Shown here: positions 9,291-35,456 of the stretch, one piece after another
Numbering within the stretch: the first letter of the stretch is position 1
Layout of the letters: every line of letters begins with the position of its first letter
DNA from: Pseudomonadota bacterium
GTDB lineage: Bacteria > Desulfobacterota > Desulfobulbia > Desulfobulbales > Desulfocapsaceae
Direction: 5' to 3'
Assembly (NCBI GenBank): GCA_018821785.1
Contig: JAHJLI010000206.1
Coordinates: 1-42,349 of the forward strand
Length of the DNA stretch: 42,349 nt
Made by a program: the position numbers and the translations under genes
The notes under the pieces: model-generated
Told to the model about the DNA's origin: nothing
Database searches by the model: none
The model's input: only the letters and a program-made list of their open reading frames with translations

Positions 9291-9365
9291 TAGTGCCTTA
9301 GAAATTCGTTGCTTCTTTTTTATAAACGAATTTCGTGAAGGTACTTATCCCGTTTATCGGGGTTA
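9291..9365 (+). repeat. Two-hairpin dispersed repeat, copy 1 (inside cyd operon)
   Basis: Long arms TAGTGCCTTAGAAATTCGTT and AACGAATTTCGTGAAGGTAC form an imperfect stem around a T-rich loop. It is followed by a second small hairpin (CCCG-TTTAT-CGGG) and a terminal GGTTA. Three relatives are at 17911-17990, 21455-21530 and 35383-35456. Compared with them, both arms here change together (CATT/AATG to CGTT/AACG), which keeps pairing. The copy lies between DUF4492 and cydA and encodes the DUF4492 C-terminus. Confidence 0.8.
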
Positions 9366-9586
9366 ATTCCTGCCGAACCAGTCAGTTGAAAAAGAACATG
9401 GTCGGCCCTTTGTTGATCTGTTGAAAAATTCGTTTTCAGAAAATTCGGAAAAAAGAACAGTTTCAAAACGACAAACATGACAATGAGCTTAACGACGATG
9501 ATTTTCCACAGAGTACGACCAACGGTCATTTCCCGAAAACCATCCCGATATAGCCCGTAACATCTCATTAATATTGACGACTTCAT
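9320..9586 (-). CDS. DUF4492 small membrane protein, first gene of the cyd operon
   Basis: This 88-residue protein has the DUF4492 signature: YRDGFREMTVGRTLWKII, then a hydrophobic helix rich in Val/Leu/Phe ending in LKLFFFPNFL. The family is known mainly as a short ORF directly upstream of cydAB in Bacteroidetes and Campylobacterota, so a role in bd-oxidase assembly is plausible but unproven. The gap to cydA is 51 bp. The last 14 or so codons (NPDKRDKYLHEIRL) and the stop lie inside repeat copy 1 (9291-9365), so the C-terminus appears to derive from the repeat. The start has a modest GGGAAAGG ribosome binding site. Confidence 0.85.
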   Translation of the reverse strand: MKSSILMRCYGLYRDGFREMTVGRTLWKIIVVKLIVMFVVLKLFFFPNFLKTNFSTDQQRADHVLFQLTGSAGINPDKRDKYLHEIRL

Positions 9587-9970
9587 AGATACCTTTCCCC
9601 GACTCCCGATAATACCAGACTGAAGATTGGCTGAATCATCAGCGTACCCCTTACTCCGCTCTCCTCACTTTTCAAGACCGCTCATCGACAGTTTGTTGCG
9701 GTATAAAATAAACAATAAGACAAACAACAGTCAAGATTAATAATAATCATTCGCAAAAAAGAGCAATTTTTTTGTCGGCAAAAAACCTTCCTGCTTTTTC
9801 ATGACTTCAGGTTGACGTAGTACTCATACTTGCGCTATGCTGTGACGTATTCCCACCACGGGGAAAAATCCTTTTATCGGACTTAGGCTCTCAACCGCCA
9901 GCTCTGCGTCGAAACGCCCAATGCGACCCAGCTCAGCAGGTCTCAATTTCACTTCCACCAATACAATTTT
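9587..9970. other. Intergenic region upstream of the cyd operon
   Basis: This 384-bp AT-rich gap lies between the divergent DUF4492-cyd operon and the MotA-like gene. It holds the candidate promoter and Fur-like site described separately (9706-9752). No protein-like frame was found in the rest. Confidence 0.4.
9706..9752 (-). promoter_or_regulatory. Candidate cyd-operon promoter with Fur-like box
   Basis: On the minus strand, TTGACT (9734-9729) is followed after 17 bp by a weak -10 (TTATTT, 9711-9706). Immediately upstream, 9735-9752 reads AATAATAATCATT on the plus strand, 12 of 13 matches to the core of the classical Fur box (AATGATAATCATT). The leader to the DUF4492 ATG would be about 115 bp. 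Only sequence similarity supports this. Confidence 0.3.
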
Positions 9971-10363
9971 ATGATACCTGACCTCTCCCTCGCAACTAAG
10001 GCCGCATGCAGTTTTGAAGACCAGGAAACCCTCGTTCCCATCGTCCTGCAACTCAAGAAATTATCTGAGGTAGTCACAAAACAGGGAATACTTGCCCTGG
10101 AAAATGAACTCCCTCAGCTGAAGGATCCATTTCTTAATCTTGGAGTCCAGCTGATCATTGACAAGGTGGAGGCGGAGAATATTAAAGATATCCTTGACTC
10201 CGACATCTATTATAACCAGTCAAATGGCAGAGAACTCTTGAAGAAAATCATTATCAGGGAAGGATTATTGCGGATCCAGGCCGGTGACACTACAAGGAAC
10301 GTTCTCATCTGCACCAAGGTTTTCCTCGGTAAAATACCTGAAGCCGCCTTCCGCAACCTCTAA
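9971..10363 (+). CDS. Soluble protein resembling the cytoplasmic loop of MotA
   Basis: This 130-residue protein contains KQGILALENELPQLKDPFL (about 37-55) and then GVQLIIDKVEAENIKDILD. In flagellar stator protein MotA the matching region reads REGLLALEEEIxxIxDPFL followed by GLxLVVDGTDPExIRxIL. That part of MotA is the cytoplasmic loop that touches the rotor protein FliG. Here none of the four MotA transmembrane helices is present, and no in-frame ATG exists between the stop at 9884 and the ATG at 9971, so the protein appears naturally soluble. The second half (IIREGLLRIQAGDTTRNV) has no clear match. No flagellar genes are nearby. No ribosome binding site is evident, so the start and even expression are uncertain. 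Confidence 0.55.
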   Translation: MIPDLSLATKAACSFEDQETLVPIVLQLKKLSEVVTKQGILALENELPQLKDPFLNLGVQLIIDKVEAENIKDILDSDIYYNQSNGRELLKKIIIREGLLRIQAGDTTRNVLICTKVFLGKIPEAAFRNL

Positions 10364-10481
10364 TCGCGACAAACTGGCTTCTATATTACTCCCTTGCGGC
10401 CCAGGGATACAAACTTCCGGTGGCCGCCGGGATGTGTGTGTCGGAGATAAAACAGGCTGATGCCTTCTCCGACTCCCGAGT

Positions 10482-12269
10482 TTATTTACCATTTTCGACG
10501 ACAACAATTTCCACCCGCCGATTTTTTGTCCGCCCATCACTGGTGTCGTTGGAGGCAATGGGCTCCTGAATGCCCATACCTTTAACCTGCACCCTTGCTG
10601 CTTCAATCCCACTGCCGACAAGCATTGTCTGTACTGCCATGGCCCTATTTTCAGACAGTTTGGTATTCTCGGGGGAATCTGCATTGGATGAAACGAAGCC
10701 CTTGACAAGCAACTTTGCCTTTGGATGCAGCTTCAGTTTTTCGACGAACCGGTGGTATTCCCTATTCGCCTCACCGGTAAGATTCAGTGAGTTAGGGGCC
10801 AAAGTGAGAACAGTCTTAACCGGCAGCTCAGGAACTTTTCCCTGATCCTTGACAGCTACCACCGCTACGGTCTTCGTTACCTTTTCCGGCACCACAGTCT
10901 CGCCAACAGCAACGTCTCCAGCTGTGGTGGTAGAAGCCGACACCTGTTGGCTGGTAGCCATAACCTTGGCACTCTTGTCTTGTAAAGTTCGTAGGTCAGC
11001 CTGACCAATGTCTGTTTGGACGACATCTTCTACCCCGGATTGGACCGCTGCTCCTTGCCGTGTGTTCTCACCACCGCTATATGCCTTTTCCAAGATGGTA
11101 TGTTTCAACTCCGCCGCTTTTTTGACATTTATCTCCTCCTGGTTCTGCTCGAGCACAGCAACGGCGGGAGAAGATATCACCAGCGGGATCTCTTTCATGA
11201 CAACCGACCTTTCCTCTTTATGGGTATCAAGCCTGGCCATTCTCTCAGTCTTGTCAACCGGATACCAGAAAAAGACTGTAGCAATAGCCAGCACTGCTCC
11301 TCCCACCAGGCCATACTTCAATAGACGAAAGCGACTATCGTTTTCAAGGTTGACTCCCGAAACAATGGCCGGGGCCTTAGAAGAACCTGGTGTAAATCTA
11401 CCCCGGAAATGTTCGAGATGACTTTTTTCGTCTTCCAGTCCCTCAAAATCTTCCTGACTGGGCTGGGACGGCAGGTTCAATTTTTGAACGCACTCTCCCA
11501 CAATTACGTGATCAAGGCTCCGCTTGCCCTTAACACTGGCGGCCACCAGGGAATGGTCGCAAATGATGTTAATCCGTTTGGGAATACCAAGAGAATAGCG
11601 GTGAATAATTTGTGTGGCCTTGGCGGAGAAAAGCTTCTCTTCGGTGCCGGCGACCTTCAACCGATGGCGAATATATTCAGCTGTTTCAACAGCTGTCAAA
11701 GCAGGCAAATCAACTTTAAGGGCAAGACGCTGCCGTACTGCCCGGTTATTGGGCTGAACAAGCATTTCATTGAATTCACGCTGGCCAACAAAAAAGATAT
11801 TTATGAGTTTGGCGTCAGCCTTTTCAATATTCGATAAAAGTCGCAACTCCTCGAGTATTTCCTGACTCAGTCTATGGCAGTCATCAATCAGCAACAATAC
11901 CTTCTTATTTTCATCGTCGGCTTTATGTAAAAAATGGCTGAATTGAATGAGAAACTGCACTTTTGAAGTGAATTTTTTGGTAATGCCGAAACCTTTAGCG
12001 ATTGCGTTATAAAAATCGAGCCTCTCCCTCTTCGGATCGCTGATCACCGCCCATTCCACGGTATTGTCGAGACTCTCGGTCAGGGCATTGATCAGGGTTG
12101 ATTTGCCAGTCCCGGCGTCACCCGTCAACAACAGAAATCCCTTGTTTTCAAGAATACCAAAACGCAAGGTGGCAAGGGCTTCCTTATGCTTTTCACCGAG
12201 CCATAGAAAAATCGGATTAGTGGTTATCTCAAACGGTTTGGATTTTACATTAAAAAATTCTCTGTACAT
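10482..12269 (-). CDS. ExeA-type AAA ATPase fused through a membrane helix to an OmpA-like domain
   Basis: The N-terminal 270 residues are an ExeA/GspA-like AAA+ ATPase: MYREFFNVKSKPFEITTNP start, Walker A GDAGTGKST (50-58), Walker B VLLLIDD (124-130) and sensor segment IFFVGQREF. A single transmembrane helix (about 319-336) follows, then about 130 residues of low-complexity periplasmic linker. A C-terminal OmpA-like peptidoglycan-binding domain (about 475-595) ends with NDTSDGRTKNRRVEIVV, which has the conserved NxxxxGRxxNRRVEI pattern. In ExeA the periplasmic part is usually a PG_binding_1 domain, and it helps place the secretin through the wall. Here OmpA replaces it, so an analogous role in placing an envelope machine is inferred. 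No secretin or type II secretion genes are nearby. Confidence 0.85.
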   Translation of the reverse strand: MYREFFNVKSKPFEITTNPIFLWLGEKHKEALATLRFGILENKGFLLLTGDAGTGKSTLINALTESLDNTVEWAVISDPKRERLDFYNAIAKGFGITKKFTSKVQFLIQFSHFLHKADDENKKVLLLIDDCHRLSQEILEELRLLSNIEKADAKLINIFFVGQREFNEMLVQPNNRAVRQRLALKVDLPALTAVETAEYIRHRLKVAGTEEKLFSAKATQIIHRYSLGIPKRINIICDHSLVAASVKGKRSLDHVIVGECVQKLNLPSQPSQEDFEGLEDEKSHLEHFRGRFTPGSSKAPAIVSGVNLENDSRFRLLKYGLVGGAVLAIATVFFWYPVDKTERMARLDTHKEERSVVMKEIPLVISSPAVAVLEQNQEEINVKKAAELKHTILEKAYSGGENTRQGAAVQSGVEDVVQTDIGQADLRTLQDKSAKVMATSQQVSASTTTAGDVAVGETVVPEKVTKTVAVVAVKDQGKVPELPVKTVLTLAPNSLNLTGEANREYHRFVEKLKLHPKAKLLVKGFVSSNADSPENTKLSENRAMAVQTMLVGSGIEAARVQVKGMGIQEPIASNDTSDGRTKNRRVEIVVVENGK

Positions 12270-12460
12270 AGTATTCCCGCTGAAAAAGCTGCGCCACTTA
12301 ACCGGTGAGAACGAACCCCCTGAACCGGCGGTTTAAGACTCTCTTTGTCCTAACACTAACGTGTCAATATTGCAATTATTTTGCACAGCCGTTATGATGC
12401 AGAGAGAACTTATTTTTCAACTGAAAATCAAACAAATAAATATCTGTCATTAGATTATTT

Positions 12461-13498
12461 ATGCCTAAATCGAACATCTCCCTTACCTTTCTTTTTTTCA
12501 TCTCTCTTGCTCTTGCTACACCACTTTCGGCAGTGGATGAAAACATGCGTTTCAAGGAAGCGCTAGACAAGGCCGACGACTACATCAAGACCTATCGCTA
12601 TTTTGAAGCCGGAGACGCTTTGAAAGAGGCAACCAAAATGGGGGGCCGAACACCCCTCCATGCACATGCGTCCCGCTCTCCTTTATTACGACCTTGGTTT
12701 GATCCCGGAGGCGATCACCGAAGGCGAGAAAGCCGTTGCCCTGGCACCTTTATCCAAGTGGTATAAATACGATCTTGCCAAATTCTATTATGTCGACAAG
12801 CAATACCTAAAAGCCGAACAACAGTTTATCTCCCTTCTCAAGCTCGATCCGGGCTTCACCTTCGGCTATTATTACCTGGCCGAATTATATTTCCGCAATA
12901 AGAACTTCGATATGGCATGGTTGAGTTTCCAAAGAGCTCGCCTGCTCGGCTTCCAAGGAACACATTTAGAGGAAAAGCTGGCTCCACACACCAAGAAACC
13001 GCTAGAAGATTTCACTGATGCATCAGAACAACATGATTTTCAGATTTGTCAAACTCTCTTCAGAAGAAGAGGCAAAGACCATCATCAACCAAATTTTTCA
13101 GGGAAAACTGTTTGAAAACCTGGAACTTGAGTTTAAAAAATGAGAAAGTTGGCGAAACTGACTTCGGGCTGGAAAGCTGGAAAAATGCCTGGCAAGCAAC
13201 GGATGTCACGAAATATCTAACTGCCTACAGTAGTGAGTTTACCCCGCCGGACAATATGGATATTGTCACCTGGAAAAAGAAGAGAACGACATGCCTTACT
13301 CGCCCGAAATTCATTCATGTGACAATCAAGGACCCGGTGATCGAGTTGCTGACCGACACCCACTTACTCATGACCTTTATTCAAGGTTTCGAATCGGACA
13401 CCTACCAGGACTCAGTTATCAAAATCCTGACCATGGTACTGGAAAATGGGAGTTGGAAAATCAGGGAAGAACGATCTGTCCAGGAGCCCTATCGATAG
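12461..13498 (+). pseudogene. TPR / Cds6-like periplasmic protein gene with three apparent frameshifts
   Basis: Four segments in successive frames join into one plausible protein. 12461 to about 12635: signal peptide (ISLTFLFFISLALATPLSA) and first repeat. About 12635 to 13030: TPR units such as YKYDLAKFYYVDKQYLKAEQQF. About 13030 to 13140: FRFVKLSSEEEAKTIINQIF, a parvulin-linker-like repeat. About 13140 to 13498: SWKNAWQATDVTKYLTAYSSEF to SWKIREE, resembling the NTF2-like domain of Cds6-type L,D-transpeptidase-associated proteins. Each change is +1. Two sit at homopolymers, G6 near 12633 and A6 near 13134. Either the gene is decaying or the assembly has homopolymer errors. The predicted location is the periplasm. 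Its end is 25 bp from the convergent VanY-like gene. Confidence 0.6.
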
Positions 13499-13522
13499 AT
13501 AGAAATGAGTTCCTACCTGCTA

Positions 13523-14395
13523 CTAAAGCTTGACATGCCAGGGCTCATAACGTACCCCGAGCATGTTGTCCTGCCAGTATCGATAATCAACAAGCCCTTG
13601 CTCTGCCAACCGTTTATAGACCGGAGTGGTTGTGAAGAGCTCAGAGAAATTACCCAGACCCAAGCCCTTCTGGCCTATATCAAAATCACCGGTGGCGTGA
13701 TAAGAATAACCGGGCGGAGCCAGAGAACGGGAAGCCAGAGAAAGATTTCCTCCGTGCCGCCAGGCTTTGCCGAGAAAAAGATAAAACTGCTTGACTATCC
13801 CCCGAATTCCCGAAGTCAGGATGACATCATCACCAAGGTTGTTTTTTATCCTGGTATATTTTTCCAGTGATTCACCCTTAAACAAGGAGTTGCCTGTTTG
13901 TGGAACCTTCACAATTTCTCCCGCAGCAATCACATGAAGAAGGGCCACAGCCTGCTTGGTACCGAAAAATCCGTAATCACCGGCATCCCTACTATAAATC
14001 ATCTCTAAAAAGGCCAGCTCGGCATTGGTAAAACTGCCGACCGAAGGTTGCCGCCTGGCAATGAGCAATGCCTCATCAAACCCGAGGGTGGAAAAATTGC
14101 CGCTGCCGACATTCAGGTAAAGGCGCGCAAGTTTATCTACCACCGCCCCTAAAAGCTGCTGCCCTGCCTCGTCAAGAACAATATCGTCTGGATGATGGGC
14201 ATCGGGATTGCGGACTTTATAGAGATAATCTTTCAGCCGATCATCCGTTGCCGGATATATCCGAGGATTTTCCTTTCCAAGGGGAGTGTCTTCTGTGGGA
14301 TGATCGCCGGACAGCAGCTCTTCAGCACTCAAGGGGAACGCAGGAGCCAGCAATAAGGTCATGACCGTCATTTTTATAAAGGCTCTTCTGGTCAT
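13523..14395 (-). CDS. VanY/M15-like D-Ala-D-Ala carboxypeptidase family protein
   Basis: This 290-residue secreted protein has a signal peptide (RRAFIKMTVMTLLLAPAFPLSA). Its C-terminal half looks like a zinc M15 (LAS) peptidase: VILTSGIRG, then GYSYHATGDFDIG (His233, Asp239) and a terminal RYEPWHVK (Glu284, His287), the ExWH catalytic motif. The His-to-Asp spacing is one residue shorter than the canonical HxxGxAxD, so this is a subfamily variant. The inferred role is trimming peptidoglycan stem peptides in the periplasm. It starts at ATG 14395 after GGGAGAGAG. It faces the broken TPR/Cds6-like gene, another cell-wall-type protein. Confidence 0.78.
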   Translation of the reverse strand: MTRRAFIKMTVMTLLLAPAFPLSAEELLSGDHPTEDTPLGKENPRIYPATDDRLKDYLYKVRNPDAHHPDDIVLDEAGQQLLGAVVDKLARLYLNVGSGNFSTLGFDEALLIARRQPSVGSFTNAELAFLEMIYSRDAGDYGFFGTKQAVALLHVIAAGEIVKVPQTGNSLFKGESLEKYTRIKNNLGDDVILTSGIRGIVKQFYLFLGKAWRHGGNLSLASRSLAPPGYSYHATGDFDIGQKGLGLGNFSELFTTTPVYKRLAEQGLVDYRYWQDNMLGVRYEPWHVKL

Positions 14396-14752
14396 AATAC
14401 AGTCTCTCTCCCTGTCTGAAATGTTCCCTGCCGCCCAGCTGTTGCGCCTGACAACAAGGGGAAATTACCTGCCGAATATCAACTTGTCAATCACTTATGG
14501 CTTGCTGTTGCTCTAGTGAACAACTGGTTGCAGGTGAAGATCTTCCTTTCCATCTTTTATCATTCTCCACGACCTCCTGCTGCCTACCGGTCAAAGCCGG
14601 GAGGATCTCTGCTGCAAATGAAATTCCTTGAGTTTGGTGTTAATGTCTGTTAATTATACGTGTTTGGTTTTGCAACAATCATGCCCCCTGATGCAAGTCA
14701 TCGTACCTCTCAGGAATTAGCCGCATAATCCGCCGGTAAAGCGATATAACAT
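14396..14752. other. Intergenic region upstream of the glycosylation cassette
   Basis: This 357-bp gap separates the divergent VanY-like gene and the GT2 gene. It contains the candidate promoter at 14628-14656. No other protein-like frame or RNA gene was recognised. Confidence 0.35.
14628..14656 (+). promoter_or_regulatory. Candidate sigma-70-type promoter for GT2-LAB_N-GT39
   Basis: TTGAGT (14628-14633), a 17-bp spacer and TAATTA (14651-14656) have correct spacing and lie about 97 bp upstream of the GT2 start codon. The -10 hexamer is only a moderate match. No other element was used as evidence. Confidence 0.35.
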
Positions 14753-15472
14753 ATGGTAGACGAACTGACCATTATAGTCCCGGTATTTAACGAAGAAGAG
14801 AGCTTACCGGCTTTTTTCCGGGAACTTGACGTCTTTGTTGAAAACGCGCCGGTAGTCGTCCGAGCCCTTTTTATTAACGATGGATCAACCGACAGCAGCT
14901 TGAAGGTGTTGATGGAAAAGTGCCGGGAACGACAAAATTCCTGCACCGTTCTCACCTTGGATGGTAATTACGGACTCAGTACGGCAATTAAAGCCGGCAT
15001 CGACCACTGTACCACCTCACTCATCGGCTACATCGATGCCGATCTTCAGACCCGTCCAGCCGATTTCCTCGCCTACCTCAGTTTTTTTCCTGAATATGAC
15101 ATGGTAAACGGTATACGCCAAAACAGACAGGACCATCTGATAAAAAAACTCTCGTCAAAAATCGCCAACGCCTACAGAAGGCTGATGATCAACGACAAGA
15201 TCCTTGACACCTGCTGCCCCTTAAAAATAATCAAGACCTCCTTCGCCCGGCAGATGCCTTTCTTCATCGGTATGCATCGCTTTATTCCTGCCCTCGTACA
15301 GTTGCAGGGCGGAAAGGTCAAGCAGCTTCCCATCGCCCATTACTCGCGCCACGCCGGCACCAGCAAATACCATCTCTGGAACCGTCTTATCGGGCCTTTT
15401 TTCGACACCCTCGCCTTTCGCTGGATTCGTAGCCGATATATCCGCTACGGCGTTACAAGCCAAAATTCATGA
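14753..15472 (+). CDS. Family 2 glycosyltransferase (polyprenyl-phosphate sugar synthase type)
   Basis: The 239-residue protein has the GT2 N-terminus TIIVPVFNEEESLPAFF, the nucleotide-binding FINDGSTDSS, and the DxD-containing YIDADLQTRP. The end has the HYSRHAGTSKYHLWNR motif typical of dolichol/undecaprenyl-phosphate sugar synthases, such as DPM1 and ArnC. Unlike ArnC it lacks C-terminal membrane helices, so it should be peripheral. The predicted reaction is NDP-sugar plus polyprenyl phosphate to polyprenyl-phosphate sugar on the cytoplasmic face. Its stop overlaps the LAB_N gene as ATGA, and the GT39 gene follows, so the three form one translational unit. Confidence 0.87.
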   Translation: MVDELTIIVPVFNEEESLPAFFRELDVFVENAPVVVRALFINDGSTDSSLKVLMEKCRERQNSCTVLTLDGNYGLSTAIKAGIDHCTTSLIGYIDADLQTRPADFLAYLSFFPEYDMVNGIRQNRQDHLIKKLSSKIANAYRRLMINDKILDTCCPLKIIKTSFARQMPFFIGMHRFIPALVQLQGGKVKQLPIAHYSRHAGTSKYHLWNRLIGPFFDTLAFRWIRSRYIRYGVTSQNS

Positions 15473-16104
15473 ACCCGTATTTTGTCTATGCCATCGGTTT
15501 TTTGGCCCAGATTCTTTTTTCGGCAAGGCTCCTTGTTCAATGGATATCTTCGGAAAAAGCAGGACGTGTCCTGTCCCCCCTGCTTTTCTGGCAACTCAGC
15601 ATCCTCGCATCCTTTCTTCTCGTACTCTATGGCGTTCTTCGCCATGATCTGGCCATCCTTCTCGGCCAGGCGGTTACCTATGGAATTTACATTCGCAACC
15701 TCTCTTATCATGGTTTCTGGAAAAAAATTCCCCGCCCCGCCAGAATATTTATTGTCGCTTTTCCCATCATGGCCATCTGCTGGCTAATCAGCGGCGAAAC
15801 CTATCATTTACAGAAGATCATCGGCAATAAAGATATCTCTTTTGCCCTTATGGTCTGGGGGTTGACCGGTCAGATTGTCTTTACCTTTCGTTTTGTCCTA
15901 CAATGGTTTTATTCCGAGAAGAAAAAACAATCGATCCTTCCGATCGAATTCTGGATCTTCAGCATTCTGGGTTCAATTATGGTCCTCAGCTATGCAATCA
16001 TCCGCAGGGATCCGGTTCTTTTTATCGGTCAACTCTTTGGTTTTGTCGTCTATTTCAGAAACACCCTGCTCTGGTGGCGACAACGCACACATCTTAACAC
16101 GTGA
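15469..16104 (+). CDS. Tandem LAB_N-domain membrane protein
   Basis: This 211-residue protein contains two copies of the lipid A biosynthesis N-terminal (LAB_N) module. The first is GFLAQILFSARLLVQWISSEKAGR with LLFWQLSILASFLLVLYG; the second is GLTGQIVFTFRFVLQWFYSEKKKQ with IEFWIFSILGSIMVLSYA. Each has about three hydrophobic helices, and both repeats keep the R(L/F)xxQW-S-EK motif. LAB_N domains are small membrane modules of uncertain biochemical role. Between a polyprenyl-phosphate sugar synthase and a GT39 transferase, this protein is a good candidate for flipping the lipid-linked sugar, standing where ArnE/ArnF would. That function is inferred only from position and membrane topology. 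Confidence 0.85.
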   Translation: MNPYFVYAIGFLAQILFSARLLVQWISSEKAGRVLSPLLFWQLSILASFLLVLYGVLRHDLAILLGQAVTYGIYIRNLSYHGFWKKIPRPARIFIVAFPIMAICWLISGETYHLQKIIGNKDISFALMVWGLTGQIVFTFRFVLQWFYSEKKKQSILPIEFWIFSILGSIMVLSYAIIRRDPVLFIGQLFGFVVYFRNTLLWWRQRTHLNT

Positions 16105-17618: not shown

Positions 17619-18008
17619 AGCCGATGACCTGACTGCGGCCACACCGACTTGTTGGAAGGAAAGCCATCAGATAAAATTTGCATGTTATTTGCGAAGAATG
17701 TTTCATGAAGGGGCATATATCCAAGAGAGCTGTATCATATAAATCCAGCTTATCGGACTTAAGCAAATCAACACTTTTATCATTTTTATTCATTTCCGAT
17801 CACATAATGGACCAGATGCATTTCGCTCGGCAGAAGAATCTATTTCCCAAAATAGATTGACAGATGGCCAGAGGTCTCGCAGTATATTCTATTGACGGTT
17901 TGTCTCTCATCAATACCTTAGAAATTCCTTTCTGGTTTTTTAGAATGTATTTCGTGAAGGTACTAATCGCCCTCTTTGTGTGGGAGGTTAAAACGTAACA
18001 GGACAAGT
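17619..18008. other. Intergenic region containing repeat copy 2
   Basis: This 390-bp gap between the GT39 gene and DUF2062 contains repeat copy 2 (17911-17990), which ends 18 bp before the DUF2062 start codon. The remaining sequence is AT-rich with no protein-like frame. Confidence 0.4.
17911..17990 (+). repeat. Two-hairpin dispersed repeat, copy 2
   Basis: Arms CAATACCTTAGAAATTCCTT and GAATGTATTTCGTGAAGGTA are followed by a second small stem (CCC..GGG, 17970-17983) and the shared end GGAGGTTA. Orientation is as copy 1. It is the most diverged copy in the inner arm. It sits directly upstream of DUF2062, so it would lie in that gene's 5' leader if transcribed. Confidence 0.7.
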
Positions 18009-21234: not shown

Positions 21235-21454
21235 CCGTAAACCTCCTTGAAGTATCGACTTGATATATCTTGATTTTTCAAGACACAACCTCTATTTCGA
21301 AAAAGCACTGGAATCGATACAAAAAGTAAAACCGTAAAAGAACCAGAGCAATTTCTTGCACGCATCACTGAGCAGCATCGATTACTTCATCGATATTTTT
21401 GTTTATATCCGTATTTTCCTCATAATCAATAGAAAAAACTCTTTTCCGAAATTC

Positions 21455-21530
21455 TAACCCCCCGCGCAAGGAAAGATAAATACCTTCACGAAATTCATTC
21501 TTAAAAACAAGAAATGATTTTCTAAACAAC
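21455..21530 (-). repeat. Two-hairpin dispersed repeat, copy 3
   Basis: Read on the minus strand: GTTGTTTAGAAAATCATTTC, a T-rich loop, AAGAATGAATTTCGTGAAGG, then a GC-rich second stem (CC..GGGGGG) and the shared end GGTTAG. The arm provides the last residues and the TAG stop (21522-21524) of the beta-CASP gene. This is the third case where a copy touches the 3' end of a gene. Confidence 0.72.
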
Positions 21531-23099
21531 AACACTTTGGCCGTGGAGAGGGACCACCACATTGTACCCCTCGCCACGAAGATACTCGGCAAACGCAAGA
21601 GTTTGTTCCTCTTCTCCATGCACCAGAGCAATCTTTTTCACCGTCAGATTGGAATCCTTCAATACCCGCATGAGTTCTTGTCTATCCCCATGAGCACTGA
21701 AACCACCAAGGGTAACTACTCTTGCCTTCAGCGGGTAATCCTTGTTATAAAAACGCACCATGGGTGCCAAACCTTTTCGACCTTCGGCATTATATTTTTC
21801 ACCAATCTCCTGCAGATGTCTGCCAAAGGTATTCTGGCCCATATACCCTACTATCAGAACCGTATTACGTTCGTCATGGATCTTGTGGCGGAGGTGGTGC
21901 AACACCCGACCACCCTCACACATGCCTGATCCGGCCAGCACAATGTGCGACCGCTGGTCACGGTTCAGCGCAATCGACTCTTCAACACTCTGCACAAACT
22001 TCAACTGGAGAAAATCAAACGGATTCAGGCCTTTTTTAAGAAAGGCTTCATGGGTTTCCTTGTCATATGTTTCTGGATGCTCCCCAAAAACATGGGTGAT
22101 CTGGGTTGCCAGTGGGCTGTCTACCCAGACCGGCATGGGCGGCACTTCCCGGGCAAGATAGAGCTCATGGAGAAAATAGATCAGTTCCTGGGTCCGGCCG
22201 TAGGCAAAAGCCGGAATGATGACAGAACCGCCCCGATCGAAGGTTTCGACCAGAACCTTTTTGAGGAGGGGCTTCATATCCTGCACTGGTTCGTGAAAAC
22301 GGTTGCCGTAGGTGCTCTCCATAATGAACAGATCGATATTGCGATGTTCCTCGGCAAAATTAAGAGTCGGATCTTTGATGATCGGCTTATTAAATCGCCC
22401 CAAGTCGCCCGAGTAGAGCACTGTTTTTGTCTTGCCTTCCCCCTGGTAACGAATGAGCGACATGGCCGAACCAAGGATATGCCCGGCCTCATAAAAAGTG
22501 CAGGTCAAACCCTCGCCTATGGTGACCGTTTCACCATAGGGAACACCTTGGAAATAGCTCAGCGCTTCCTCCACCTCGGTCATTGTATAAAGGGGAGTAA
22601 TCACCTCGAGATGATGCTCTGTCAGAAGCTTTTCAATGATTTCTCTGCGGAGACCATGTTCTCCGGATTTCAGTATGGATTTTATTTCCTGCAGATCTTC
22701 CCCTGAGATAGCATTCTTCCCATCGCCGGTTTTGACCTTCGCCAGAAATGCTTTGGCCGTTTTATAGTTGAGGTAGGAGGCGTCGCCTTCCTGAATCTTG
22801 GCCGAATCCCGAAGCAGATATTCACTGGCAGCGGCTGTAGCCCTAGAGCAGAATATCTGCCCTTTGAAGCCTTTCCTGGTAACCATCGGCACACGCCCGG
22901 AATGATCGATATGGGCATGGGAGAGAATCATATTGGTCAAGATTTTCGGATCAACGGGTAAAACCCGGTTCTTCGCCTCGGTTTCCTTGCGTTTTCCTTG
23001 GAATAACCCGCAATCCAAGAGAAGAATGTCGTCGTCGGTTGTCACCGTATGAAACGACCCGGTAACCTCTCGGGTTGCGCCGAAAAATGAAACGTGCAT
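21522..23099 (-). CDS. MBL-fold beta-CASP ribonuclease
   Basis: The 525-residue protein has metallo-beta-lactamase motif HAHIDHSG (His61, His63, Asp65, His66), YEAGHILGSAM (third metal-binding His) and SGDLGR. The beta-CASP parts are IMESTYGNR, VDSPLATQITHVF and GGFSAHGDRQELM near the end. This is the CPSF73/YSH1-like class of RNA-processing nucleases, here bacterial, with a C-terminal RMMBL-type segment. Substrates are probably RNA, such as mRNA turnover or 3' processing. Length is normal. The ATG follows AAGGAG. A methyltransferase gene is upstream on the same strand, about 130 bp away. Confidence 0.9.
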   Translation of the reverse strand: MHVSFFGATREVTGSFHTVTTDDDILLLDCGLFQGKRKETEAKNRVLPVDPKILTNMILSHAHIDHSGRVPMVTRKGFKGQIFCSRATAAASEYLLRDSAKIQEGDASYLNYKTAKAFLAKVKTGDGKNAISGEDLQEIKSILKSGEHGLRREIIEKLLTEHHLEVITPLYTMTEVEEALSYFQGVPYGETVTIGEGLTCTFYEAGHILGSAMSLIRYQGEGKTKTVLYSGDLGRFNKPIIKDPTLNFAEEHRNIDLFIMESTYGNRFHEPVQDMKPLLKKVLVETFDRGGSVIIPAFAYGRTQELIYFLHELYLAREVPPMPVWVDSPLATQITHVFGEHPETYDKETHEAFLKKGLNPFDFLQLKFVQSVEESIALNRDQRSHIVLAGSGMCEGGRVLHHLRHKIHDERNTVLIVGYMGQNTFGRHLQEIGEKYNAEGRKGLAPMVRFYNKDYPLKARVVTLGGFSAHGDRQELMRVLKDSNLTVKKIALVHGEEEQTLAFAEYLRGEGYNVVVPLHGQSVVV

Positions 23100-28083: not shown

Positions 28084-28169
28084 ATGGTTGTTCATAATTG
28101 TCTTCGGTCTGGTGTGTGCTGAGTGGCGGCCACATTGGTATGAATAAAAGTAGCGAAAAAGGGGAAACG

Positions 28170-29032: not shown

Positions 29033-29033
29033 T

Positions 29034-30749
29034 ATGAATGCGACGGCTCTTGAAAAAATTAAGGCCGCGTTTCCAGACGCCATCTGCACAACGGCTCTGG
29101 ACTCAGTGGTTGTTGAAGTTCAGCCTGAAAACCTGGAGAGAACCCTTTCTCGGTTAAAAAATGATCCAGCCTTCAACTGTGGTCTGCTGGTCGATGTCAC
29201 CGGCATTGACTACCTTCAATACCCGACCCCACAGAAGGTCAGGTTCCATGTGGTGTATACCCTCCGCAACTGGATCGACAACCTCCTCATCCAGGTACGG
29301 TGTGCGGTGGTCGATCCACAGGCAGGCATCCCCACCGCCACCCATTTATGGGGTTCGGCAAACTGGGGAGAGAGAGAGGTCTACGATCAATACGGAATTC
29401 GGTTCAATGGCCACCCCGATCTGAGAAGAATACTCAATCACTGGCAGTTTGAGGGCCATCCGCTACGCAAAGATTACCCGATCGAAAAGGGTCAGATCTG
29501 CTACGAAACGGATCCCCTGGAAGACGAGATCAGGTCCCGTCTCTTCGAAAACGGTATTGATGAAACCACCATGAAGGACATCAATACCGAGATCATGTTT
29601 CTCAATCTCGGGCCCTCCCATCCCGCCACCCACGGGGCGATCAGGATTCTTACCGCACTTGATGGCGAAACCATCCTGGCGAACGTCAACGAAATCGGCT
29701 ATCTGCACCGCGGCTTTGAGAAAACAGCGGAAACCAGGACCTATAATCAAATCATCCCGCTGACCGACAGGCTTAATTACTGTTCTTCGATGATCAACAA
29801 TATCGCCTACGCCAAAGCCGTTGAAGCGTGGCTTGGGGTTACGATCACCGAACGGGCCAAATTCATGCGGGTGGTACTTACTGAGTTTTACCGTGTCCTT
29901 GATCACTTGGTCTGTCTGGCTGCCGCCCTGGTCGACATGGGTGGTTTGACAAACTACTGGTACCTCTATAACGAGAAAGAGGCTGCCTACGATCTTATCA
30001 GCCGCCTCACCGGTGCCCGCCTCACCAGTTCCTTTACCAGGATTGGCGGTATGTATCGTGATTTTTATGAGGGCTGGGAGAAAGACCTGGAATTGCAGCT
30101 TCTGGGCATAGAAAAGGGTATCGGCGATGCTCTGAAATTGGTGGAAACCAACCGTATCGTCCATGACCGGACCCAGGGCGTCTGTGTTGTTTCTGCAGAA
30201 ACCGCTCTCAGCTATGGTTTTACCGGACCGGTCCTGCGAGCAAGCGGTGTCCCCTATGACCTGCGTAAAGATGCCCCTTACTACAATTATGAATCCTTTG
30301 ATTTCGAAGTTCCAGTCGGCACCAATGGCGATATCTACGACCGTTTCATGATTCGCTTTTATGAGATGGCTCAATCGATTCGTATCATTCGCCAAGCCAT
30401 GCAACATATCCCTGAAGGTCCGATCAATGTCAAGGACTCCCAGGTCTGTCTGCCGCCAAAAGATCAAGTCTATAGCAACATTGAAGGTCTGGCCAACCAC
30501 TTCAAACTGATTTTTGAGGGTGTGAAGGTTCCGGCCGGTGAATGGTATGATGCCTATGAGGCCGCAAACGGCGAACTCGGCTTCCATTTTGTTTCCGACG
30601 GATCTGGACAACCCTACAAGCTTAAGGTGCGACCACCGTGTTTCTATACCATGGGAGGTTTTCATAAAATGGTTGAAGGTAATATGATAGCAGACGCCGT
30701 CATCAACCTCAGTTGTATCAATATAATAGGCGGGGAGTTGGACAGATGA
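29034..30749 (+). CDS. nuoCD: NADH-quinone oxidoreductase subunit C/D fusion
   Basis: The 571-residue protein joins NuoC (about 1-165, ending with the HWQFEGHPLRKDYPIE block) to NuoD (about 185-571, starting with TEIMFLNLGPSHPATHG). NuoD keeps IGYLHRGFEKTAE and the quinone-side C-terminus GGELDR. NuoD forms the quinone pocket with NuoB. The fusion is as in E. coli and some deltaproteobacteria. Start taken at 29034 (MNATALEKIK), just after the nuoB stop. It overlaps nuoE as ATGA. Confidence 0.95.
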   Translation: MNATALEKIKAAFPDAICTTALDSVVVEVQPENLERTLSRLKNDPAFNCGLLVDVTGIDYLQYPTPQKVRFHVVYTLRNWIDNLLIQVRCAVVDPQAGIPTATHLWGSANWGEREVYDQYGIRFNGHPDLRRILNHWQFEGHPLRKDYPIEKGQICYETDPLEDEIRSRLFENGIDETTMKDINTEIMFLNLGPSHPATHGAIRILTALDGETILANVNEIGYLHRGFEKTAETRTYNQIIPLTDRLNYCSSMINNIAYAKAVEAWLGVTITERAKFMRVVLTEFYRVLDHLVCLAAALVDMGGLTNYWYLYNEKEAAYDLISRLTGARLTSSFTRIGGMYRDFYEGWEKDLELQLLGIEKGIGDALKLVETNRIVHDRTQGVCVVSAETALSYGFTGPVLRASGVPYDLRKDAPYYNYESFDFEVPVGTNGDIYDRFMIRFYEMAQSIRIIRQAMQHIPEGPINVKDSQVCLPPKDQVYSNIEGLANHFKLIFEGVKVPAGEWYDAYEAANGELGFHFVSDGSGQPYKLKVRPPCFYTMGGFHKMVEGNMIADAVINLSCINIIGGELDR

Positions 30750-31252
30750 GCGACCGTTCACAACTGATTTCTACAGGAAAGCCCTTCCAGTACGACCAGG
30801 AAAGGGATGCTGAATTCGAGAGACTCATCAAACGCTACCCCACCAGAGAATCGATGATTCTTCCTTCTCTCTGGCTGATCCAGGAACAGGAGGGGTGGAT
30901 CAGCCAGGAGGCGATAGCCTACGTCGCCGATCGGATCGGCACCTTCGCCAGCAAGGTATACGAAGCTGTAACCTTCTACACCATGTACCAGCTTCATCCG
31001 ATGGGCAGACATCACATCTGTGTCTGCCGCACCCTCTCCTGCTGGCTACGCGGCAAACAGGAGATTATCGATTACCTGAAGGACGAGATCGGAATCATCC
31101 CCGGTCAAATCGACGAGGACGGCCGCTTCAGTCTGGAAGAGGTTGAATGCTTGGGTCACTGCGGTACCGCCCCGGTTGTTCAGGTCAATGGCGAATTCCA
31201 TGAAGACATGAACGTGGACAAGCTGAAAGCGCTGCTGGCCACATTGAAATAG
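30746..31252 (+). CDS. nuoE: NADH-quinone oxidoreductase subunit E
   Basis: The 168-residue 24-kDa-type subunit carries [2Fe-2S] cluster N1a, ligated by Cys94 and Cys99 (CRTLSC) and Cys135 and Cys139 (ECLGHCG). It has the thioredoxin-like fold with EAVTFYTMYQLHP. ATG 30746 overlaps the nuoCD stop. With NuoF and NuoG it makes the NADH-oxidising module, so this complex I should use NADH directly, unlike the NuoE/F/G-less forms. Confidence 0.95.
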   Translation: MSDRSQLISTGKPFQYDQERDAEFERLIKRYPTRESMILPSLWLIQEQEGWISQEAIAYVADRIGTFASKVYEAVTFYTMYQLHPMGRHHICVCRTLSCWLRGKQEIIDYLKDEIGIIPGQIDEDGRFSLEEVECLGHCGTAPVVQVNGEFHEDMNVDKLKALLATLK

Positions 31253-31266
31253 GGAGGCGGACCGAT

Positions 31267-32541
31267 ATGGAAGTAAAAATTCTCAGTGCCAAGTTCGATA
31301 TCAAGGACGCCAATAAAATTGCCGTTGCCAAACCCCTCGGCGCCTATGCTACCCTCGACAAACTCTTTGCCATGAAGCCTGAAGAGGTTATTGAGGAGGT
31401 AAAGAAGAGCGGCCTCAGGGGCCGAGGTGGAGCTGGCTTTCCAGCCGGGGTAAAATGGGGATTTCTCCCTAAAAATACCGGCAAGCCCATATATCTTACG
31501 GTAAACTCCGACGAATCGGAACCTGCCACCTTCAAGGATCGCTATATCCTGGTCAGAGATCCGCACATGCTCATTGAAGGCATTATTATCTGCAGTTATG
31601 CCATCGGCTGCCATGACACCTATATTTACATCCGCGGGGAATATACCACCCAGGTAAAGGTGCTGCAGGCGGCCATTGATGAGGCCTATGCCGAGGGTTA
31701 CCTCGGCGACAGTGTCGCCGGCCATGATTTCAAACTGGACGTCACCGTCCACCGCGGCGCCGGGGCCTATATCTGCGGCGAAGAGACTGCACTCCTCGAA
31801 TCGATTGAGGGGAAAAAGGGTCAACCGCGCAGCAAACCGCCATTTCCTGCCGTTGCCGGTCTCTATGGTTGCCCGACCATCATCAATAATGTTCAGAGTA
31901 TCGCTTCACTGCCCTTCATCATAGAAAAAGGCGCCGACGCCTATAAGGTATACGGCACCCAGAAGAGCCCCGGCACCCATCTCTTCGGGATCTCTGGTCA
32001 TGTGGAAAAACCGGGCATGTATGAACTGCCGCTTGGTCTGCCGATCCTTGAAGTCATCGATAAGGTTGCAGGCGGCGTATGGAAAGGCCGGAAGCTGAAG
32101 GGCATCATCCCCGGCGGGAGCTCCACTCCTGTTCTTCTGCCGGACGAGGCAAAAGACGTCACACTCGATTACGAGTCGATGGCCGCCCACAAGACCATGT
32201 TCGGCTCGGGCGGCATAGTGGTGCTGGACGAGACGGTTGATATCGTTCAACTCGTTAAAAATCTCATCGATTTTTACCATCACGAATCCTGCGGCCAGTG
32301 TACACCGTGCCGGGAAGGCCTTGGATGGATGTTGAAGATTATCAAAAAGATACTCCGCCGCGAAGGCAGCATGGACGACGTCAACCTGCTACGCGAACTC
32401 TGCGACAACATCGAGATGAAAACAGTCTGCGTCTTATCTGCTGCATGTACCATGCCGGTGCGCAGCTATCTTGATAAGTTCAGGCACGAGTTTGAGGCGT
32501 ATGTTCAGAACGCTTCTTCAGTACAAGCGAAACAGGAATAG
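31267..32541 (+). CDS. nuoF: NADH-quinone oxidoreductase subunit F
   Basis: The 424-residue subunit binds NADH and FMN through GRGGAGFPAGVKW (52-64) and VHRGAGAYICGEETALLES. It carries [4Fe-4S] cluster N3, with Cys342, Cys345, Cys348 (CGQCTPC) and Cys388. Length is normal. A strong AGGGAGG lies before the ATG. It is the electron entry point of the complex. Confidence 0.96.
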   Translation: MEVKILSAKFDIKDANKIAVAKPLGAYATLDKLFAMKPEEVIEEVKKSGLRGRGGAGFPAGVKWGFLPKNTGKPIYLTVNSDESEPATFKDRYILVRDPHMLIEGIIICSYAIGCHDTYIYIRGEYTTQVKVLQAAIDEAYAEGYLGDSVAGHDFKLDVTVHRGAGAYICGEETALLESIEGKKGQPRSKPPFPAVAGLYGCPTIINNVQSIASLPFIIEKGADAYKVYGTQKSPGTHLFGISGHVEKPGMYELPLGLPILEVIDKVAGGVWKGRKLKGIIPGGSSTPVLLPDEAKDVTLDYESMAAHKTMFGSGGIVVLDETVDIVQLVKNLIDFYHHESCGQCTPCREGLGWMLKIIKKILRREGSMDDVNLLRELCDNIEMKTVCVLSAACTMPVRSYLDKFRHEFEAYVQNASSVQAKQE

Positions 32542-32549
32542 GGCACCCC

Positions 32550-34112
32550 ATGGCTGATACGATTAATCTTTTTGTAAACGGAGTTGAAGTCGAGGTCGAA
32601 GCTGGGAAAAATCTGATCGACGCCATCGGTGCCGTCGGCATCGAGATTCCCCACCTCTGCTACCACCCGGCACTCGGCGCCGACGGCAACTGCCGCATGT
32701 GTCTGGTCGGCATCGAAGACGGCAGACCACCTCTGGTCCCGGCCTGCAAGACACCGGCCCAGGCAGGGATGAAGGTGTTGCTTGACGCCGCGCATATCAA
32801 AAAAATCCAGCGCGATGTCATGGAACTTGAGCTGATCAATCATCCAACCGACTGCCCGATCTGCGATCAGGCCGGTGAATGCAAACTGCAGGATTATTAT
32901 ATGACCTACGGTCGGCCGGAAAGTCGGATGACCGTCCCCCAGGTGCAGAAAAGCAAAAAACTCGATTTTGGCTGCGGTGTCGTCCACGATCAGGAACGCT
33001 GTGTGACCTGTGGCCGGTGTGTCCGCTTCTGTCGAGAGATCACCAAAACCGGCGAGCTGGGCATTATCAACCGAACAGATGCGGCTCGAGTTAACATCTT
33101 TCCCGGCAGGCCTCTCAATAACCGCTATGCCCTGAATGTCGTCGATCTTTGTCCGGTCGGCGCCATGACCAGTAGAGATTTCCGCTTCAAGCAGCGGGTC
33201 TGGTTCCTAAAAAAGGCCCCAGGTATCTGTCACGGTTGCGCCAAGGGGTGCAACATCACCATTGAGCATAATCGGGAAAAATACCAGGATGACCTTATCT
33301 ATCGCTTTCGGCCACGCCTAAACCTTCAGGTCAACGGCTATTTCATGTGCGATGCCGGACGACTCAGTTACAGGCAGGAGAATGAAGGCCGTTTGCTCGA
33401 AGCGCGGTTGAACAGCCAGATTCGCCCTCTAGAGGATGTGCTTGCCGCCTACAACCAGGAGATTGAACGAGCCGAAAAAATTGCCATTCTTCTCTCCCCC
33501 AACTGCTCCCTGGAACAGATGGTTGCGGTCAAGGCCCTGGCAACAAAACTTCAGGCCTCACTCTCCGGATTCAGTGCCGGATATATTCAACAGGGCGACG
33601 GCGACGGTTTTCTTATTGAAGATGACAAGTCGGCCAATCGAGCAGGTCTTACACTGCTTGGCATCGATTGTACCCAGGAACACTTTGAAAAGGCAGTGCA
33701 GGAAACTCAGCTCCTGATCAATTTTAACAACGACCTCAGCCGCAGCTATGCCGAACATGAATTAAAGAAACTCCTCAAGGACACCAAGGTTATATTCGCT
33801 ACCTCCCACGATGACAGTCTTGCAACGATGGCCGATATCGCCATACCGGTTGCTGCTTCCAGCGAATATGCCGGAAGTCTTATAAATTGTAACAACATCC
33901 TGCAAACATTTACCGGAGCAGTAAGCAAAAACCACAAGCCTGCCGACATAGGGGAGCTTGCCGCAAAACTCGGCAGTCCCCTGCAAAACCGCGCAGAGCA
34001 ATTTGCAGAGCTCCGGATATACCTCAGTGTCCTTAAAGACTTTGAAGCTGATACAGTCCCGGCCGAGGGATTGAATTTAAACGATAGCGAGGCTGCCAAT
34101 GTCACTGCTTGA
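32550..34112 (+). CDS. nuoG: NADH-quinone oxidoreductase subunit G, short form
   Basis: The N-terminal half has all expected Fe-S sites: [2Fe-2S] Cys37, 48, 51, 66; His98-Cys102-Cys105-Cys111 for N5; Cys151, 154, 157, 201 for N4; and Cys227, 230, 234, 267 for the optional N7. The C-terminal part is only about 240 residues, compared with about 650 in E. coli NuoG, so much of the molybdopterin-enzyme-like domain is missing, though ATSHDDSLATMADIAIPVA and EYAGS segments remain. Short NuoG forms occur in several bacteria. It overlaps nuoH by 14 bp, and no lesion is seen. Confidence 0.92.
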   Translation: MADTINLFVNGVEVEVEAGKNLIDAIGAVGIEIPHLCYHPALGADGNCRMCLVGIEDGRPPLVPACKTPAQAGMKVLLDAAHIKKIQRDVMELELINHPTDCPICDQAGECKLQDYYMTYGRPESRMTVPQVQKSKKLDFGCGVVHDQERCVTCGRCVRFCREITKTGELGIINRTDAARVNIFPGRPLNNRYALNVVDLCPVGAMTSRDFRFKQRVWFLKKAPGICHGCAKGCNITIEHNREKYQDDLIYRFRPRLNLQVNGYFMCDAGRLSYRQENEGRLLEARLNSQIRPLEDVLAAYNQEIERAEKIAILLSPNCSLEQMVAVKALATKLQASLSGFSAGYIQQGDGDGFLIEDDKSANRAGLTLLGIDCTQEHFEKAVQETQLLINFNNDLSRSYAEHELKKLLKDTKVIFATSHDDSLATMADIAIPVAASSEYAGSLINCNNILQTFTGAVSKNHKPADIGELAAKLGSPLQNRAEQFAELRIYLSVLKDFEADTVPAEGLNLNDSEAANVTA

Positions 34113-35385
34113 TATTTTTATGTTTGTCGCAAGAGTTGCCTTCGCGGCCTTTGTCCCGCTCTGCTTTATCGCGGTCTGCGTGTGGATGGAGCGGAGGGGG
34201 GCCGGTTATTTTCAGGATCGGTCCGGCCCAAACCGCGCCCATATCTTTGGCTTTCGGGCTGCCGGATTGGTGCAGAATCTCGCAGATGCAGCCAAGCTTT
34301 TCTTTAAAGAAGATGTCATTTCCGGCCATATCGAACACAAGTTTTATTTTGTTCTGGCCCCGGTGATTGTTTTCTTCACTGCCCTAGTCTCCTTTGCCGT
34401 TGTCCCTTTTGCCGATACTCTGGTGCTCGGCGGTAAGAGTTATATCATGCAGGGTATCCCCCTTGACCTTGGTATTCTCTGGTTTTTGTCCTTTGTCGGA
34501 TTCGGTGTCTACGGCATCATACTCGCCGGTTGGTCGTCAACCAATAAATTCGGCGTCCTCGGCGCCCTTCGCTCGGCGGCTCAGGTTATCAGCTATGAGA
34601 TTCCCATGGGGCTGGCCATCGTCAGTCTGCTCGTTGTCTATGGCACAGTAAATCTGAATGAAATTGCTCAGTTCCAGGGGAAGCTCCTGTTCGGGTTCAT
34701 CCCCATGTGGGGTGCCGTCCTGCAACCTTTGGCAATGGTTATCTTTATAATCGCCGCCTTCGCCGAAACCAACCGAACCCCTTTTGATCTGGCCGAGGGT
34801 GAAAGCGAACTGGTCGCCGGCTTCCATGTCGAATACAGCGCCATGAAGTTTGCAATTTTTTTCATGGGTGAATACGTCGCCATGTTCGCATCGAGCGCCA
34901 TGATCGTCACCCTCTTTTTTGGTGGTTACCAGATTCCGTTCCTCTCTACAGCGACGCTTATCAGCCAGGCCAAGCCGGTGGCCTTCCTTCTGATGGTCAT
35001 CATCCCGGTTGTCATGTACTTTTTCACCGGGTGGGTCAGGAGGAGCAACGTCAGCCACTATCCGCGGGAAAACGATCCGCGGGTGTTCGAGGCTACTGTC
35101 TACATCAAATGTTTTTGGGGCCTGGTTATCATCCTGGAAGTGCTCCTGCTGGCCATCCTGTTCTCTACCTCAGGTGGTGCGACTGCGCATATTTTCGTGG
35201 TGTTATTGCAGGTGTGCACCTTCCTCTTAAAAATCACCATGATGATTTTCGTTTATATATGGGTACGCTGGACCTTGCCCCGTTTTCGCTATGACCAGCT
35301 ACAGAAATTGGGATGGCAGATGCTCCTACCATTGGCACTTCTGAACATTTTCATTACAAGCGCCTTTGTCGTGGCGTTGAGCTAA
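34099..35385 (+). CDS. nuoH: NADH-quinone oxidoreductase subunit H with C-terminal-side insertion
   Basis: NuoH is the membrane subunit linking the quinone site to the proton channels. Conserved parts include MERRGAGYFQDRSGPNR, the FAETNRTPFDLAEGESELVAGFHVEYS loop and IWVRWTLPRFRYDQLQKLGW. The protein is 428 residues versus about 325-340 usually. The extra length lies at about 282-374, between LFFGGYQIPF and the last conserved block, and contains two further hydrophobic segments (about 292-311 and 338-356). Repeat copy 4 begins at its stop codon. Confidence 0.93.
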   Translation: MSLLDIFMFVARVAFAAFVPLCFIAVCVWMERRGAGYFQDRSGPNRAHIFGFRAAGLVQNLADAAKLFFKEDVISGHIEHKFYFVLAPVIVFFTALVSFAVVPFADTLVLGGKSYIMQGIPLDLGILWFLSFVGFGVYGIILAGWSSTNKFGVLGALRSAAQVISYEIPMGLAIVSLLVVYGTVNLNEIAQFQGKLLFGFIPMWGAVLQPLAMVIFIIAAFAETNRTPFDLAEGESELVAGFHVEYSAMKFAIFFMGEYVAMFASSAMIVTLFFGGYQIPFLSTATLISQAKPVAFLLMVIIPVVMYFFTGWVRRSNVSHYPRENDPRVFEATVYIKCFWGLVIILEVLLLAILFSTSGGATAHIFVVLLQVCTFLLKITMMIFVYIWVRWTLPRFRYDQLQKLGWQMLLPLALLNIFITSAFVVALS

Positions 35386-35456
35386 CCCCGGTAAACGGGA
35401 TAAGTACCTTTATGAAATGCATTTAAAAAGCCAAGAAATGAATTTCTAAGGTACTA
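35383..35456 (-). repeat. Two-hairpin dispersed repeat, copy 4 (inside nuo operon)
   Basis: Read on the minus strand: TAGTACCTTAGAAATTCATT, loop TTCTTGGC with T-run, AATGCATTTCATAAAGGTAC, then CCCG-TTTAC-CGGG and GGTTA. It begins at the nuoH stop and ends just before the nuoI ribosome binding site (GGAGAGG). It is the closest relative of copy 1, sharing nearly all of the tail. Confidence 0.8.

What the first reader, a model, noticed from the sequence alone, without database searches (positions are those of the whole stretch)
9291..35456. Dispersed 75-bp two-hairpin repeat in four intergenic copies
Copies at 9291-9365 (+), 17911-17990 (+), 21455-21530 (-) and 35383-35456 (-) share the order long imperfect stem, T-rich loop, second small hairpin, and final GGTTA. 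Arms have the consensus GTACCTTAGAAATTCATT and AATGAATTTCGTGAAGGTAC. No transposase is nearby. It may be a REP/MITE-type element or a mobile RNA-structured element not tied to a known family.
Basis: seen in the sequence. Interest (0 to 1): 0.72.

Follow-up and report, generated by a model that had tools for sequence, protein, structure and literature searches.

The report
TTAG-targeted two-hairpin mobile repeat family
The four repeats are copies of a small folded mobile DNA element, present well over a hundred times in this bacterium and also found in many of its relatives, which sits next to the letters TTAG and for which no transposase could be identified.

Summary
The four copies are real; genome-wide 107 places match the 17-base core, none its reversed control. 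A covariance model finds 149 of 150 scored candidates (a cap); sampling suggests about 350 copies. It occurs in 22 of 37 genomes of relatives (own included) and 58 of 146 of the order. Covariation supports both hairpins.

Empty orthologous sites show insertion of a 68-74 bp unit between TTAG and TTAG/TTAA. Copies are intergenic, without net orientation preference towards genes (39 sense, 36 antisense) or GC skew: a mobile DNA repeat rather than a cis-RNA.

It is REP/MITE-like but not a canonical REP: TTAG replaces GT[AG]G, and it has two hairpins. 1 of 33 Y1-transposase loci examined holds a full copy; G005 has 98 copies and no Y1 match. No autonomous copy was found in the parts read.

Unexpected: in G005, 45 copies carry 31 different stem arms, yet 31 of 45 are perfectly paired over 9 bp, and some form mosaic arrays.

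The parts
9294..9362 (+). Copy 1 (69 bp): long hairpin with internal loop A/GTG and T-rich loop, then second hairpin; between TTAG 9290-9293 and TTAA 9363-9366; upstream of a cytochrome bd oxidase subunit I gene (7736-9268, -)
   Evidence: absent at the orthologous site of G004, G006, G003 (and G009, weaker alignment); neighbour gene
17914..17987 (+). Copy 2 (74 bp), flanked by TCAA 17910-17913 and TTAA 17988-17991; longer second hairpin
   Evidence: 65.7 bits; the orthologous site could not be aligned
21458..21521 (-). Copy 3 (64 bp), 5'-truncated: begins at the internal TTAG of the element, fused to the TTTAG that holds the stop codon of a beta-CASP metallo-hydrolase gene (21522-23099, -); right flank TTAG 21454-21457
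   Evidence: 61.6 bits; absent in G004, which keeps the stop codon but also lacks a few neighbouring bases; gene
35386..35453 (-). Copy 4 (68 bp) between TTAG 35454-35457 and TTAG 35382-35385 (the latter holds the stop codon of the NADH dehydrogenase subunit gene 34099-35385, +)
   Evidence: of 13 orthologous sites 3 hold this family, 2 a diverged relative, 7 are empty, 1 not alignable; gene

Best explanation
It is a non-autonomous mobile DNA element of 68-74 bp, a REP/MITE-like repeat with two hairpins. SHOWN: the unit is present at sites that are empty in relatives; TTAG (or TTAR) borders it on both sides in copies 1 and 4; by eye its outer ends are not inverted repeats of one another; both hairpins are kept by covariation; the copies lie between genes. 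INFERRED: an enzyme supplied in trans recognises the folded single strand, cuts 3' of TTAG at the left end and after the terminal hairpin at the right end, and joins the piece 3' of another TTAG. The most likely enzyme type is an HUH single-strand nuclease of the IS200/IS605-TnpAREP kind, acting on single-stranded DNA of either replication strand. The enzyme itself was not identified. Confidence that it is a mobile non-autonomous DNA element is about 0.95; that the enzyme is HUH-type about 0.4.
For: Copy number and reversed-pattern control; model hits. Filled and empty sites, the empty ones with a single TTAG-like site. Covariation on 112 rows: 96.6% of cells paired, 189 double-change cells against 55.7 in shuffles, 0 of 500 shuffles as high; slid structures 39-54% paired. 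Right-end 4-mer exactly TTAG in 47 of 112 rows though the search pattern did not ask for it (per position T 81, T 95, A 75, G 80 of 112). Left 4-mer exactly TTAG in 14 of 30 G000 copies found without asking for it (counted by hand on the print). Tandem copies share one TTAG or TTAA, as insertion after the terminal TTAG would give. Copy 3 begins at the internal TTAG, as if that TTAG had been the cutting site. Two hairpins, no terminal inverted repeats and fixed tetranucleotide targets are the known manner of IS200/IS605 elements (established knowledge; PMC6006769: abstract, section 12 and passages seen).
Against: Of 33 Y1 loci examined (of 75 matches) 1 holds a full copy, about 850 bp from the Y1 domain (L033), no more than the background; a left-end fragment lies about 260 bp from a truncated Y1 frame in L035. 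G005 (97% complete) has 98 copies and no Y1_Tnp match; G084 (84% complete) has 16 matches and none. No bias with GC skew (18 against 12; 24 against 29), whereas IS608-like elements prefer the lagging strand (PMC6006769, passages). The IS200-like elements of G011 have other ends, judged by eye. No long copy with a transposase gene between its ends was found in the stretches held. The tag is inexact: 53 of 112 right ends are none of TTAG, TTAA and CTAG.
Confidence: 0.5

Rival explanations
1. A classical MITE moved by a DDE transposase that makes a 3-4 bp duplication (TTA or TTAG).
For: TTA/TTAG stands on both sides of the unit, and one of the two may be a target duplication; for copy 1 a 3-bp TTA duplication fits about as well as tetranucleotide targeting.
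Against: By eye the outer ends (TACC.. and ..CGGGG) are not inverted repeats of one another; the inverted arms stop about 20 bp short of the right end. Pairing is kept in the second hairpin too.
Confidence: 0.15
2. A cis-acting RNA or processing element (3'UTR, attenuator) kept by selection on the host at each site.
For: Strong structure with covariation; in G005 many loci have their own stem and keep it paired; copies often abut stop codons (16 sense copies of 95 placed); the G000 sample leans to sense (15 sense, 6 antisense).
Against: No preference in the larger set: 39 sense and 36 antisense in co-directional gene pairs, 15 divergent, 5 convergent. 7 of 13 orthologous sites of copy 4 are empty. 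G-U and A-C pairs 30 each without the constant T.G pair. No Rfam match above gathering score in the window, only chance-level ones in 5 loci.
Confidence: 0.12
3. A true REP moved by a RAYT, whose gene is absent from the assemblies or too diverged for Pfam PF01797.
For: RAYT-length Y1 frames (about 220-350 residues) occur in many genomes of the genus; over the order, copies are found in 55 of 129 genomes with a Y1 match and 3 of 17 without (p 0.064, taking the 146 genomes of both calls as the same). TnpAREP subclass 2.6 has atypical structures without GT[AG]G (PMC6006769, section 12).
Against: 1 full copy at 33 Y1 loci; G005 without a Y1 match has 98 copies; the TTAG tag and two-hairpin form differ from GT[AG]G REPs.
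Confidence: 0.2

Closest known systems
REP / BIME repeats with RAYT (TnpAREP)
   Same: High-copy intergenic hairpins with a bulged stem and a conserved tetranucleotide at the foot; mosaic arrays in G005
   Different: TTAG instead of GT[AG]G; 68-74 bp with two hairpins; 1 full copy at 33 Y1 loci
IS200/IS605-derived small elements (PATE; a passage in PMC4853749 seen)
   Same: Hairpins, no terminal inverted repeats, insertion beside a fixed tetranucleotide
   Different: No autonomous element with these ends found in the parts read; no bias with GC skew
CGTC-tagged REPs (PMC3733652, abstract)
   Same: Tagged repeats said to lack a dedicated transposase
   Different: Other tag, shorter repeats, mainly alpha-proteobacteria
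DDE MITEs
   Same: Short non-coding multi-copy insertion with empty sites
   Different: No terminal inverted repeats at the outer ends, by eye

Membership tests
REP (RAYT-associated) | many copies between genes, palindromic | tested here: met
REP (RAYT-associated) | unpaired GT[AG]G at the foot of the hairpin | tested here: not met
   the conserved foot is TTAG, read on the aligned copies
REP (RAYT-associated) | copies flank a RAYT gene | tested here: not met
   1 full copy at 33 Y1 loci examined, of 75 matches; plus one left-end fragment
REP (RAYT-associated) | RAYT present in genomes with the repeat | tested here: inconclusive
   55 of 129 with Y1 against 3 of 17 without, p 0.064; G005 and G084 lack a Y1 match
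BIME | mosaic arrays of palindromic units with conserved spacers | tested here: met
   met in G005 arrays; the copies of the window are single
IS200/IS605 non-autonomous element | insertion 3' of a fixed tetranucleotide | tested here: inconclusive
   TTAG-like on both sides, empty sites have one TTAG-like site; a short duplication looks the same
IS200/IS605 non-autonomous element | orientation biased to the lagging strand | tested here: not met
   18 against 12 and 24 against 29 by sign of GC skew
IS200/IS605 non-autonomous element | autonomous element with the same ends in the genome | tested here: inconclusive
   none in the stretches held; G011 IS200 ends differ by eye; genomes were not read whole
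DDE MITE | terminal inverted repeats at both outer ends | tested here: not met
   judged by eye
Rfam RNA families | match above gathering score | tested here: not met
   0 matches in the window; only chance-level matches in 5 loci

The most novel reading that the evidence does not exclude
The two arms of the hairpin are copied from one another. In G005 many loci have their own stem sequence, yet both arms agree. This is what would be expected if the element were propagated through a folded single strand whose one arm is re-synthesised on the other (self-primed or template-switched copying), so that stems drift freely in sequence but not in pairing: a mobile element whose identity is a shape, moved by a system that is not a Y1 transposase.
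Probability: 0.15. Interest if true: 0.8.

Novelty: new variant of a known kind. Interest (0 to 1): 0.55.

Why it matters
It is a widespread, high-copy mobile repeat family with another tag (TTAG) and a two-hairpin build, and the expected transposase was not detected in a genome that carries about a hundred copies, many of them well paired. That makes it a clean case for asking what moves such repeats, and the compensated stem variation within one genome gives a handle on whether copying, correction or selection keeps hairpins paired.

Tried and rejected
RAYT partner by flanking: not supported. Long autonomous copy with a gene between left and right ends: 40 loose candidates, some of them the same place in two overlapping loci; the one with convincing ends (G000 C76) encloses a 320-residue open frame that looks like an ordinary membrane transporter and lies beside fragment copies (the gene name is recalled, no family search was made). 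Solo left ends read in G005 are truncated or decayed copies. IS200-like elements of G011 as donors: ends do not match by eye. Cis-RNA reading: disfavoured by orientation and empty sites. Replication-strand bias: none seen (in G005 53 of 98 copies lay within 60 kb of a sampled stretch, 45 were dropped; that G-rich means leading strand is recalled). Virus carriage: 0 exact pattern matches in viral contigs. The automatic RNAalifold structure on the first alignment gave no pair and a sequence-only model (R1), not used; R2 was built with a structure taken from the fold of copy 1, so its hits lean to that structure; controls are. In one search two of five measures were reached by some shuffles (20 and 25 of 500). 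A5 holds 112 rows from 100 of 110 fetched loci; one row (L171, +) is an antisense match over another copy and was dropped only. Integron attC and IS110 readings were considered from recall and dropped without a test. Other transposase families were not searched. Literature: five answered searches; no listed title or abstract start describes this repeat, but only open-licence papers are held and supplements could not be read. PMC12306157 (two passages) counts many REP-like sequences in Desulfotalea psychrophila; I could not see whether they include this element. Papers seen: abstracts with outlines of PMC6006769 and PMC3733652, section 12 and passages of PMC6006769, one passage of PMC3733652, passages of PMC12306157 and PMC4853749; the rest as search listings.

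Full report
Check of the observation. The four copies are real and placed nearly as stated. The core AATTTCGTGAAGGTACT with up to 3 mismatches occurs 4 times in the window against 0.085 on average (maximum 2) in 200 simulated windows. In the whole genome (G000, 5.47 Mb in 315 contigs, 94% complete) the core occurs 107 times with up to 2 mismatches and the reversed control 0 times.

Family size. A covariance model (R2, built from 34 copies) gives 149 matches at E 0.01 of 150 candidates scored, so the number is capped. In 400 kb of stretches of G000 outside the window it finds 26 copies at E below 0.001, about 65 per Mb or about 350 per genome. The contigs used were known to hold copies, so this may be somewhat high. 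In 470.6 kb from nine relatives, chosen for synteny or similarity to G000 stretches, 11 matches at E 0.01 were found, so density is lower there.

Anatomy. Consensus: TTTAG | TACCTTAGAAATTCGTTTCTTGTTTTTTATAAACGAATTTCGTGAAGGTACTTATCCCGTTTACCGGGG | TTAG. Outer stem 8 bp (its first two letters belong to the left TTAG), asymmetric internal loop A/GTG, inner stem 10 bp, T-rich loop; then a GC-rich hairpin of about 6 bp. On 112 rows from 100 loci of named genome contigs, 96.6% of cells are paired, 12 pairs have double changes, and none of 500 shuffles reaches any of the five observed measures; sliding the partners drops pairing to 39-54%. These rows were aligned to the model, which favours the structure. 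The first, unfitted alignment of 34 copies gives 87.8% paired and 24 double-change cells against 10.5 shuffled (0 of 500), while two other measures were reached by 20 and 25 of 500 shuffles. Some copies have lost the internal loop and are perfect palindromes.

Insertion. Between two NADH dehydrogenase genes, 13 orthologous sites were compared: 3 hold this family (G000, G001, G003), 2 a diverged relative in the same place (G007, G011), 7 are empty with a single CTAA, CTAG or TTAG at the stop codon, 1 cannot be aligned. Copy 1 is absent from G004, G006 and G003 (and G009, weaker alignment), which have TTAT or a similar sequence where G000 has TTAG-unit-TTAA; copy 3 is absent from G004; copy 2 could not be judged. 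So the element is mobile and its ends are defined. Copy 3 begins at the internal TTAG of the element, which suggests that TTAG is the cutting site (inference). Whether one of the two TTAGs is a duplication or both belong to the mechanism cannot be told apart.

Context. In G000, 30 copies with a home-made gene finder: none inside genes, 11 overlapping a gene end by 1-24 bases; 15 sense and 6 antisense in co-directional pairs, 7 divergent, 2 convergent (tallied by hand). In named contigs, 111 copies: 13 dropped at edges, 3 inside predicted frames, 39 sense, 36 antisense, 15 divergent, 5 convergent; 16 sense copies start at a gene's stop codon and 8 antisense copies end at one. The larger set argues against a strand-specific RNA role; the smaller leans to sense.

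Spread. 22 of 37 genomes (own included) have matches, some in other families of the order; 58 of 146 genomes of the order (own included) in a stricter search with 30 candidates scored per genome. None in viral contigs. At least three subfamilies exist: TACC.. (G000), TGCCTTACAGATT.. (G018, G028 and others) and TGACTTAGAAATA.. (G005).

Search for the mover. Y1_Tnp (PF01797) has 6 matches in G000 and 75 in 15 genomes of the genus, none in G005. Of 33 of these 75 loci, read with up to 1.5 kb on each side, 1 holds a full copy, about what density alone gives, and one more (L035) a left-end fragment. G005 has 98 copies at E 0.001. Over the order, copies occur in 55 of 129 genomes with Y1 and 3 of 17 without (p 0.064), a weak association that genome size and completeness may explain. 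Orientation shows no bias with GC skew (18/12, p 0.36; 24/29, p 0.58). No autonomous copy was found, but only part of each genome was read and other transposase families were not searched.

An unexpected pattern. In G005, 45 copies (46 found, one too short dropped; one or two rows look misparsed) carry 31 different 9-base left arms; 31 of 45 are perfectly paired over 9 bp (shuffled mean 2.9, maximum 8), and against the modal pair there are 71 compensated double changes and 28 uncompensated ones. Decay after insertion alone would give mostly uncompensated changes; in the inner stem of the 34 G000 copies there are 13 compensated and 32 uncompensated cells (summed by hand). Either many well-paired founder elements spread, or selection acts at each locus, or one arm is copied from the other. 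In G005 the element also forms arrays with further units mostly about 85 or 113 bp apart. Of 8 arrays printed, in 5 the units share one stem sequence (nearly exactly), in 2 they do not, and in 1 the second unit lacks the hairpin. This resembles BIMEs.

Verdict. A real, mobile, non-autonomous two-hairpin repeat family inserted at TTAG: REP/MITE-like in behaviour, not a canonical REP by tag, build or transposase link. The most likely mechanism is recognition of the folded strand by an HUH-type enzyme in trans; the enzyme is unidentified, and absence of a Y1 match in G005 and of strand bias stand against the simplest form of that idea. It is a new variant of a known kind; novelty in print was checked only by the searches named in Tried and rejected.

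Noticed in passing
L322, L324, L326, L320, L325, L344, L349, L350 (genome G005): BIME-like mosaic arrays: one complete unit followed by further units mostly about 85 or 113 bp apart, some with extra hairpins (..CCCGTCAAGCGAGTACTGAAAAGAGT..); in these arrays the units share one stem sequence, in L333, L337 and L353 they do not.
   Followed up: partly
L149 and L150, between the two NADH dehydrogenase genes: G011 and G007 carry a diverged relative of the element at the same CTAA site where G000 has copy 4.
   Followed up: partly
L068, L082, L104:12533-12620, L110:10000-10084: Longer copies with an additional hairpin and an ACTGAAAAGAGT-like linker before the last hairpin; the same module stands apart from the copy in L072.
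   Followed up: no
L215 (contig titled Chloroflexi GWC2_73_18): A copy nearly identical, near flanks included, to one in L235 (Desulfobacterales GWB2_56_26), which suggests a misbinned contig.
   Followed up: no
   Followed up: no
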